Positions 47,110 to 47,464 of a DNA stretch of 64,000 nucleotides are shown here, in pieces (position 1 is the first letter of the stretch; each line of letters begins with the position of its first letter). The stretch is from an uncultured bacterium (GTDB lineage Bacteria > Bacillota > Clostridia > Lachnospirales > Lachnospiraceae), in the NCBI GenBank assembly GCA_947574055.1, contig CANPIC010000004.1, positions 1-64,000 on the forward strand, given 5' to 3'. The notes beneath the pieces are model-generated. The model was not told where the DNA came from and made no database searches. It saw nothing but the letters and a program-made list of their open reading frames with translations. The position numbers and the translations under genes are program-made.

Positions 47110-47226
47110 TGACGATGCGAAGGACTCGAACCCCCGATCTGTACCCGGGCTCCAGCTCTGCTGTCCGTACCACCGGCATGATACGATAATTGGCAGGTAC
47201 CATGTTTCCTTTACACTACATCGCCA
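47110..47226 (-). ncRNA. tRNA-like RNA 3 with expanded anticodon-arm domain
   Basis: Acceptor TGGCGATG/CATCGTCA; D-arm-like TAGTGTAAAGGAAACAT; stem GTACC/GGTAC enclosing ~50 nt; T-arm GGGGGTTCGAGTCCTTC. Confidence 0.78.
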
Positions 47227-47230
47227 TATG

Positions 47231-47344
47231 AGTGAGGGGCGGAATCGAACCGCCGACAACGCCATTATAAGTGGTTGGATGATTGCTGCAGGAATCACGG
47301 CCATGATTCCTTTTTTTCGTGCTCTACCCCTGAGCTACCTCACT
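47231..47344 (-). ncRNA. tRNA-like RNA 2 with expanded anticodon-arm domain (tRNA-Ile(UAU)-like if 43 nt removed)
   Basis: Acceptor AGTGAGG/CCTCACT; D arm GCTCAGGGGTAGAGC; T arm GGCGGTTCGATTCCGCC; insertion with GGAATCATGGCCGTGATTCC hairpin. Confidence 0.82.
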
Positions 47345-47347
47345 CAT

Positions 47348-47464
47348 CCGGCGGGCAGGATTCGAACCTGCAAACATGGCGGTCCTTTATGCATACTCTG
47401 CTGTCAGTTCCACAAACATGAAACATTTGGCTACCGCTGCGTCTCCCATTTCCGCCACCACCGG
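47348..47464 (-). ncRNA. tRNA-like RNA 1 with expanded anticodon-arm domain
   Basis: Acceptor CCGGTGG/CCGCCGG; D arm GCGGAAATGGGAGACGC; stem GCGGT/ACCGC enclosing 49 nt; T arm GCAGGTTCGAATCCTGC. Confidence 0.8.

What the first reader, a model, noticed from the sequence alone, without database searches (positions are those of the whole stretch)
47130..47450. Covarying hairpin shared by the three expanded domains: GNNTCA-TGNNNG-TGRNNC then (GA)CAGCA
Aligned cores: RNA1 GTTTCATGTTTGTGGAACTGACAGCAGAG; RNA2 GAATCATGGCCGTGATTCCTGCAGCAATC; RNA3 GTATCATGCCGGTGGTACGGACAGCAGAG. All form a 6-bp stem with a TGNNNG hexaloop. Stem positions 2-4 change in compensatory fashion (TTT/GAA, AAT/ATT, TAT/GTA), while the loop ends and the following CAGCA stay constant. 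RNA1 and RNA3 also share GCCAA upstream and the exact 10-mer GACAGCAGAG. Compensatory change in three paralogous copies is evidence of a functional RNA structure, possibly a protein-binding or splice/processing element.
Basis: seen in the sequence. Interest (0 to 1): 0.88.

Follow-up and report, generated by a model that had tools for sequence, protein, structure and literature searches.

The report
Ro-like protein's RNA docking hairpin
Three tRNA-shaped RNAs in a gut bacterium carry the same small hairpin-plus-CAGCA tag, and that tag recurs with freely varying but perfectly matched stems beside the same Ro60-like protein gene in dozens of bacteria and phages, so it is very probably the handle by which a large, almost unstudied family of Ro-like proteins holds its RNAs.

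Summary
Minus-strand window 47110-47464 holds three tandem tRNA-like RNAs directly upstream of a DUF2828 gene (45448-46911). In each, the anticodon arm is expanded and carries a 7-bp hairpin (GNNN loop), a 3-nt spacer and CAGCA. In the whole 2.85-Mb genome the core pattern occurs three times: these three. Across 80 DUF2828 loci (Lachnospiraceae, viral contigs, 24 phages) the element occurs 171 times on the DUF2828 strand against 20 on the other; 78 distinct stems vary at all seven pairs, with compensation. CAGCAA ranks first of 4096 hexamers in an unbiased test. The element also occurs strand-permuted, closing short RNAs, YrlA-like permuted tRNA mimics, and leaders of the DUF2828 mRNA next to the Shine-Dalgarno sequence. 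The DUF2828 model matches only Ro60/TROVE structures in the PDB at E<0.001. Best reading: a Ro60/Y-RNA-like RNP family in which this element is the protein's docking site, with leader copies giving feedback control. Binding itself is not shown. The T5 tRNA array and TROVE loci lack the element, and Rfam has no such family. New variant of a known kind (Ro-Y RNPs).

The parts
47347..47464 (-). RNA1, tRNA(Leu)-like RNA, ~118 nt, 7-bp acceptor CCGGTGG/CCGCCGG, T arm GCAGG-TTCGAAT-CCTGC, anticodon arm expanded
   Evidence: sequence, Rfam tRNA 20.6 bits (below gathering), stems placed
47407..47424 (-). element hairpin in RNA1: GTTTCAT-GTTT-GTGGAAC
47399..47403 (-). CAGCA of RNA1 (spacer TGA at 47404-47406)
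47229..47345 (-). RNA2, tRNA-like RNA, ~117 nt, acceptor GAGTGAGG/CCTCACTC, D arm and T arm present, anticodon arm replaced
   Evidence: sequence; constrained fold equals MFE -42.7 kcal/mol; fold z-score -2.4
47292..47309 (-). element hairpin in RNA2: GAATCAT-GGCC-GTGATTC
47283..47288 (-). CAGCAA of RNA2 (spacer CTG)
47110..47225 (-). RNA3, tRNA(Gln)-like RNA, ~116 nt, acceptor GGCGATG/CATCGTC, anticodon stem GTACC/GGTAC kept, loop expanded
   Evidence: Rfam tRNA 32.7 bits over gathering 29
47167..47184 (-). element hairpin in RNA3: GTATCAT-GCCG-GTGGTAC
47159..47163 (-). CAGCA of RNA3 (spacer GGA)
46928..46935 (-). AGGTCATG just before the Shine-Dalgarno sequence of the DUF2828 gene: position and sequence of the 3' strand of the permuted leader element of relatives; the partner at 46981-46986 (GTGGCC) keeps 6 of 7 pairs but CAGCAA is missing, so here it is degenerate or lost
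   Evidence: sequence compared
45448..46911 (-). DUF2828 + DUF7788 (vWA-like) protein, 487 aa, Ro60/TROVE-like fold, invariant DxSxS MIDAS-type motif (D293, S295, S297)
   Evidence: Pfam, alignment, AlphaFold2 pLDDT 91.5 pTM 0.90, Foldseek

Best explanation
The hairpin + NNA + CAGCA(A) is the docking site of the neighbouring DUF2828 protein, a Ro60-like ring protein, on its non-coding RNA partners, which are tRNA mimics working like bacterial Y RNAs. The protein would recognise the geometry of a 7-bp helix of free sequence flanked by CAGCAA on one strand and by G on the other; which end carries the loop does not matter. The element is therefore found (a) as a hairpin grafted into the anticodon arm of a linear tRNA mimic (this window), (b) closing circularly permuted tRNA mimics with the YrlA topology, (c) closing short RNAs, and (d) in the leader of the DUF2828 mRNA next to the ribosome-binding site, where binding of surplus protein would repress translation. 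The tRNA body would be processed by tRNA enzymes and would gate, tether or decoy the RNP in RNA quality control or repair. Shown: the element, its covariation, its linkage to DUF2828, the Ro-like fold of the protein, tRNA-like bodies, leader placement. Inferred: binding, autoregulation, and the downstream RNA task.
For: Linkage: 171 strict elements on the DUF2828 strand in 62 of 80 loci against 20 on the opposite strand; the base after the 5' strand is G in 150/171 against 4/20; CAGCAA gives 147 elements, the other 59 permutations of its letters at most 21 (a one-base shift) and then 12. Unbiased: in 24 diverse phage loci CAGCAA is first of 4096 hexamers for having a 7-nt complement 15-110 nt downstream, 56 of 161 sites against 6.8 expected. 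Covariation; 78 distinct stems with all seven pairs varying. Protein: six PDB matches at E<0.001, all Ro60/TROVE/Rsr, 1yvr at 7.6e-7. In trans: GAP32 has its elements in a tRNA array 200 kb from DUF2828. Leader: 24 of 40 Lachnospiraceae/viral loci with a permuted element have its 3' strand ending at most 45 nt before the DUF2828 start codon, against 5.9% of upstream positions by chance. Specificity: none with the diagnostic G in T5's tRNA array, none convincing at TROVE loci. Topology b: e.g. L106 2635, L093 4530, L090 about 2070-2190. Known parallel: the vertebrate Ro60 site is a 7-bp helix with bulges (PMC4726728).
Against: No binding data. The structure match is fold-level only (TM 0.40-0.62, 12-16% identity), with no sequence profile match to Ro60. 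Some DUF2828 loci lack a nearby element: 6 of 49 Lachnospiraceae/viral loci and 4 of 24 phages. The window's own leader copy is degenerate. Ro60 sites in Y RNAs are sequence-conserved, whereas this helix is free in sequence. In Listeria phage CKA15 the most abundant non-coding RNA near DUF2828 (26,236-26,727) has no CAGCAA element.
Confidence: 0.77

Rival explanations
1. The element is a processing or stabilising signal for the tRNA-like RNAs, read by a host or phage ribonuclease or RNA ligase that travels with DUF2828 rather than by DUF2828 itself.
For: RNA ligase or RtcB genes lie next to DUF2828 in GAP32, Munch and Listeria phages; tandem RNAs 1-3 nt apart must be processed.
Against: The only protein constantly present is DUF2828; the window has no ligase or RtcB neighbour among the genes scanned; the element sits inside the RNA bodies and in the DUF2828 leader, not at the RNA ends.
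Confidence: 0.12
2. The RNAs are decoys for anticodon nucleases or translation factors: tRNA-shaped but without an anticodon; the hairpin merely blocks decoding, and DUF2828 is incidental.
For: The anticodon arm is what is replaced; DUF2828 phages carry tRNA arrays and RNA repair genes. Hughes et al. 2020 raise a decoy role for YrlA (PMC7790460).
Against: Does not explain the fixed CAGCAA and spacing, the permuted copies with no tRNA body, or the copies at the DUF2828 ribosome-binding site. A decoy role may coexist with the best explanation.
Confidence: 0.06
3. The inserts are introns or relics in ordinary tRNA genes, with the hairpin as splice signal.
For: Inserts lie at the anticodon arm; tRNA models score 41-57 bits on 110-127-nt stretches.
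Against: RNA2 keeps no anticodon stem around the insert; the same element closes RNAs that are not tRNAs; ARAGORN finds no tRNA.
Confidence: 0.02
4. A mobile or repetitive (REP-like) hairpin that spreads in tRNA arrays.
For: Several copies per locus.
Against: Stems are nearly all different yet paired, copies are not homogenised, and the element is tied to one gene family and one strand.
Confidence: 0.02

Closest known systems
Ro60/Rsr - Y RNA (YrlA, Rfam RF02553) ribonucleoproteins
   Same: Ro60-like fold of helical repeats plus vWA; RNA gene beside and co-oriented with the protein gene; tRNA mimicry; in phages the same circular permutation (5' stem strand, T arm, acceptor, D arm, 3' stem strand); a roughly 7-bp protein-binding helix with non-paired neighbours.
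   Different: Protein is DUF2828/DUF7788, not TROVE by Pfam; the recognition motif is free helix + NNA + CAGCAA + G instead of the conserved AUGC / AaAcUuG strands of YrlA; the window RNAs are linear tRNAs with the site grafted as a hairpin into the anticodon arm; several RNAs per locus; extra copies in the mRNA leader.
Phage 'Ro-like RNA binding protein' (SEA-PHAGES name) and the putative Y RNAs of Listeria phage CKA15 (PMC12282133)
   Same: Same protein family (PHROG 850) and similar location by tRNA genes; its authors already suspected Y RNAs from HHpred and RNA-seq.
   Different: No motif or structure was proposed in the text read here; the most abundant region they describe does not contain this element.
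Autoregulatory mRNA leaders that mimic the protein's RNA ligand (ribosomal protein and thrS-type operators; own knowledge)
   Same: A copy of the RNA site lies next to the ribosome-binding site of the protein's own gene.
   Different: Here inferred from position only; the copy is strand-permuted relative to the hairpin form.

Membership tests
Ro60/TROVE proteins | helical-repeat ring plus vWA fold | tested here: met
   AlphaFold2 pTM 0.90; Foldseek PDB matches at E<0.001 are all Ro60/TROVE/Rsr
Ro60/TROVE proteins | match to Pfam TROVE PF05731 | tested here: not met
   only DUF2828, DUF7788 and a weak VWA_2 match
Ro60/TROVE proteins | MIDAS-type DxSxS motif in the vWA domain | tested here: met
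   D293, S295, S297 invariant in 96 sequences; not compared residue by residue with Ro60
Y RNAs (YrlA) | score over the Rfam YrlA gathering threshold | tested here: not met
   window best 27.3 bits against 69, spanning two RNAs; none in 20 DUF2828 loci
Y RNAs (YrlA) | gene next to and co-oriented with a Ro-like protein gene | tested here: met
   exception GAP32, where the RNAs lie in a distant tRNA array
Y RNAs (YrlA) | circularly permuted tRNA-like module | tested here: inconclusive
   met in several phage RNAs; not met by the three window RNAs, which have linear tRNA order
Y RNAs (YrlA) | conserved Ro-binding strands (AUGC / AaAcUuG) | tested here: not met
   YrlA consensus shown; replaced by CAGCAA / G
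Y RNAs | physical binding to the Ro-like protein | not testable with these tools
   needs EMSA or CLIP
tRNA | decodable 7-nt anticodon loop | tested here: not met
   ARAGORN finds none in the window; loop replaced by a ~50-nt insert

The most novel reading that the evidence does not exclude
DUF2828 proteins and CAGCAA-element RNAs form a separate, very widespread class of Ro-type RNP, largely carried by phages, in which a portable, sequence-free helix tag makes many different RNAs (tRNA mimics in both linear and permuted order, short RNAs, and the protein's own mRNA leader) clients of one ring protein, with built-in feedback control of the protein by its RNA pool.
Probability: 0.5. Interest if true: 0.88.

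Novelty: new variant of a known kind. Interest (0 to 1): 0.8.

Why it matters
DUF2828 proteins are encoded by hundreds of sequenced phages (681 records), including Felix O1-like phages, Listeria phage P100/A511 and mycobacteriophages, and by about 10% of the Lachnospiraceae genomes sampled, yet no paper found here describes their RNA partners. A defined RNA site turns 'Ro-like, function unknown' into a family with named ligands, an obvious mutational test and a predicted feedback loop. It also gives a linear, hairpin-grafted counterpart to the permuted YrlA design, which bears on how Y RNAs arose from tRNAs.

Tried and rejected
ARAGORN and Rfam alone do not identify the window RNAs. Single-sequence folding is a weak argument: z-scores -0.2, -2.4, -1.4. 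Sequence search of the PDB finds no Ro60; only the fold does. PADLOC and NCBIfam have no family for the protein. The stable RNAs of phage T5 were checked as a possible known example and lack the element. TROVE loci of the same phylum lack it. The RNA-seq hotspot of Listeria phage CKA15 was checked and does not contain the element, though three elements lie in the DUF2828 leader of that phage. REP-like and intron readings were rejected. Plasmids carry DUF2828 in only 4 records. Key papers on bacterial Y RNAs (Chen 2014; Sim and Wolin 2018; Sim 2020) are not in the library, so overlap with their phage Y RNAs could not be excluded.

Full report
What is there. On the minus strand, window 47110-47464 encodes three tightly packed tRNA-like RNAs (118, 117 and 116 nt, 1-3 nt apart), followed after about 200 nt by a gene for a 487-aa protein (45448-46911) with Pfam DUF2828 and DUF7788. 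Each RNA has a 7- or 8-bp acceptor stem and a T arm; RNA1 resembles tRNA(Leu) and RNA3 tRNA(Gln); RNA3 scores 32.7 bits as tRNA. ARAGORN calls no tRNA.

The hairpin. The right description is a 7-bp stem with a GNNN loop, a 3-nt spacer (mostly NNA) and CAGCA. In the 31 aligned hairpins the U-G closing pair and one C-G pair never vary; the other positions vary, four of them with compensation on both sides. The exact core pattern is found three times in the whole 2.85-Mb genome, only here, and three times in the one other genome of the genus with DUF2828, again only beside that gene. Between those two genomes RNA1 changes GTTTCAT/GTGGAAC to GCTTCAT/GTGAAGC, i.e. U-A to C-G plus U-G to U-A.

Wider sampling. 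DUF2828 loci were collected from GTDB genomes (42 loci, mostly Lachnospiraceae), IMG/VR (14) and annotated phages (24 of 681 records). Test on positions not used for selection: in 46 distinct cores chosen on the inner positions only, the outer three pairs match in 120 of 138 cells, shuffles 66 +/- 5. Formal pair counts on 31 hairpins: 97.2% paired, 50 cells changed on both sides against 15 in shuffles.

The permuted form. Many CAGCA sites have no hairpin; instead the complementary strand lies about 30-120 nt downstream. The element is thus a helix with CAGCAA after one strand and G after the other, joined at either end. In phages of Bacillus, Listeria, Enterococcus, Staphylococcus, Mycobacterium, Campylobacter, Aeromonas, Vibrio, Klebsiella, Salmonella and Cronobacter it occurs with helices such as AAGACAC/GTGTCTT, TGGACGC/GCGTCCA, AGACCAA/TTGGTCT. 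An unbiased scan of all 4096 hexamers ranks CAGCAA first, 56 of 161 sites against 6.8 expected. With a strict detector: 171 elements on the DUF2828 strand, 20 on the other; following G in 150/171 against 4/20. Seventy-eight distinct stems use alternative Watson-Crick pairs at every one of the seven positions. Some loci are near-identical (e.g. L051/L073, L078/L086), so the 171 are not all independent; the 78 distinct stems are the safer number.

What the permuted RNAs look like. 36 of 121 contain a T-loop sequence. About a dozen, judged by eye, run T arm, acceptor, D arm in that order, for example L106 2635, L093 4530, L101 2644 and L087 4039: the topology of YrlA, whose consensus was displayed. 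Others are short with no tRNA features. In the DUF2828 mRNA leader of 24 of 40 Lachnospiraceae/viral loci that have a permuted element, its 3' strand ends within 45 nt of the start codon, typically as GCGTCATG-GAAAGAGAGG-AAAACATG, abutting the Shine-Dalgarno sequence; 5.9% is the background. In this window the corresponding AGGTCATG is kept at 46928-46935 but its partner lacks CAGCAA, so the leader copy is degenerate.

The protein. AlphaFold2 on a 96-sequence alignment gives pLDDT 91.5 and pTM 0.90. Foldseek against the PDB gives six matches at E<0.001: Ro autoantigen (1yvr, 2i91 chains A and B), a TROVE domain (9kop), Ro60 with pre-5S rRNA (9nep) and D. radiodurans Rsr (2nvo). TM-scores are 0.40-0.62, identity 12-16%. 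The DxSxS motif is invariant.

Controls. The T5 tRNA array (25 kb, no DUF2828 annotated in the stretch) and TROVE loci show only isolated chance matches. In GAP32 the elements lie in a tRNA array at 305-312 kb while DUF2828 is at 106 kb, so they would have to act in trans. Six Lachnospiraceae/viral loci and four phage loci lack a nearby element.

Literature. Searches for DUF2828 found no study of its RNA. The jumbo phage review (PMC7824862) mentions a TROVE protein with a tRNA-like partner in general terms. The Listeria phage CKA15 paper (PMC12282133) proposes, from HHpred and RNA-seq, that its DUF2828 protein is Rsr-like and that abundant non-coding RNAs nearby may be Y RNAs; the main hotspot does not carry this element. 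The vertebrate Ro60 site is described as a seven-base-pair helix with a bulged C and a 3-nt bulge (PMC4726728). Chen et al. 2014 on bacterial and mycobacteriophage Y RNAs could not be read; part of the phage RNAs may be known there.

Interpretation. The simplest account is a Ro/Y-like RNP whose docking element is this helix-CAGCAA tag, with leader copies for feedback. It works like a Ro-Y RNP; it is not filed as YrlA or TROVE because the defining profile and sequence tests fail. Binding, feedback and the RNA-handling task are inferred.

Noticed in passing
window 18490-18714, 23703-23912, 43013-43334: Three arrays of tandem repeats with the same 104-bp period but diverged sequence; the units share AGTNCCGCATNC and a TGCTGT end, which looks like a family of related tandem repeats. 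No Rfam match at gathering.
   Followed up: no
L131 (GAP32 302000-316000) positions 4446-9883: Seven elements with the diagnostic G in a phage tRNA array 200 kb from the DUF2828 gene.
   Followed up: partly
L092 4889-5131 and L095 4869-4978: Phage genes annotated tRNA-Ser / tRNA-OTHER of 110-121 nt are element-bearing tRNA mimics, so phage annotation mistakes these RNAs for tRNAs.
   Followed up: yes
L130 3977-4468 (Listeria phage cka15 26236-26727): The most abundant RNA of CKA15 infection (PMC12282133) is a ~490-nt non-coding region without the element: a separate unexplained RNA.
   Followed up: partly
L048, L049, L050, L074, L080 leaders of DUF2828: The permuted leader element closes a degenerate tRNA(Tyr)-like core with a CAGACTGTAAATCTG-type hairpin (GTA anticodon-like loop) and a T arm, so the element stem takes the place of the acceptor stem.
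   Followed up: partly
L042, L046, L055, L057, L069 upstream of DUF2828: A set of Lachnospiraceae loci with an intact-looking DUF2828 gene has no element upstream.
   Followed up: partly
L094, L097, L109: RNA ligase near or directly upstream of DUF2828 in GAP32 and Munch, RtcB a few genes on in Listeria phages: repeated RNA repair context.
   Followed up: no
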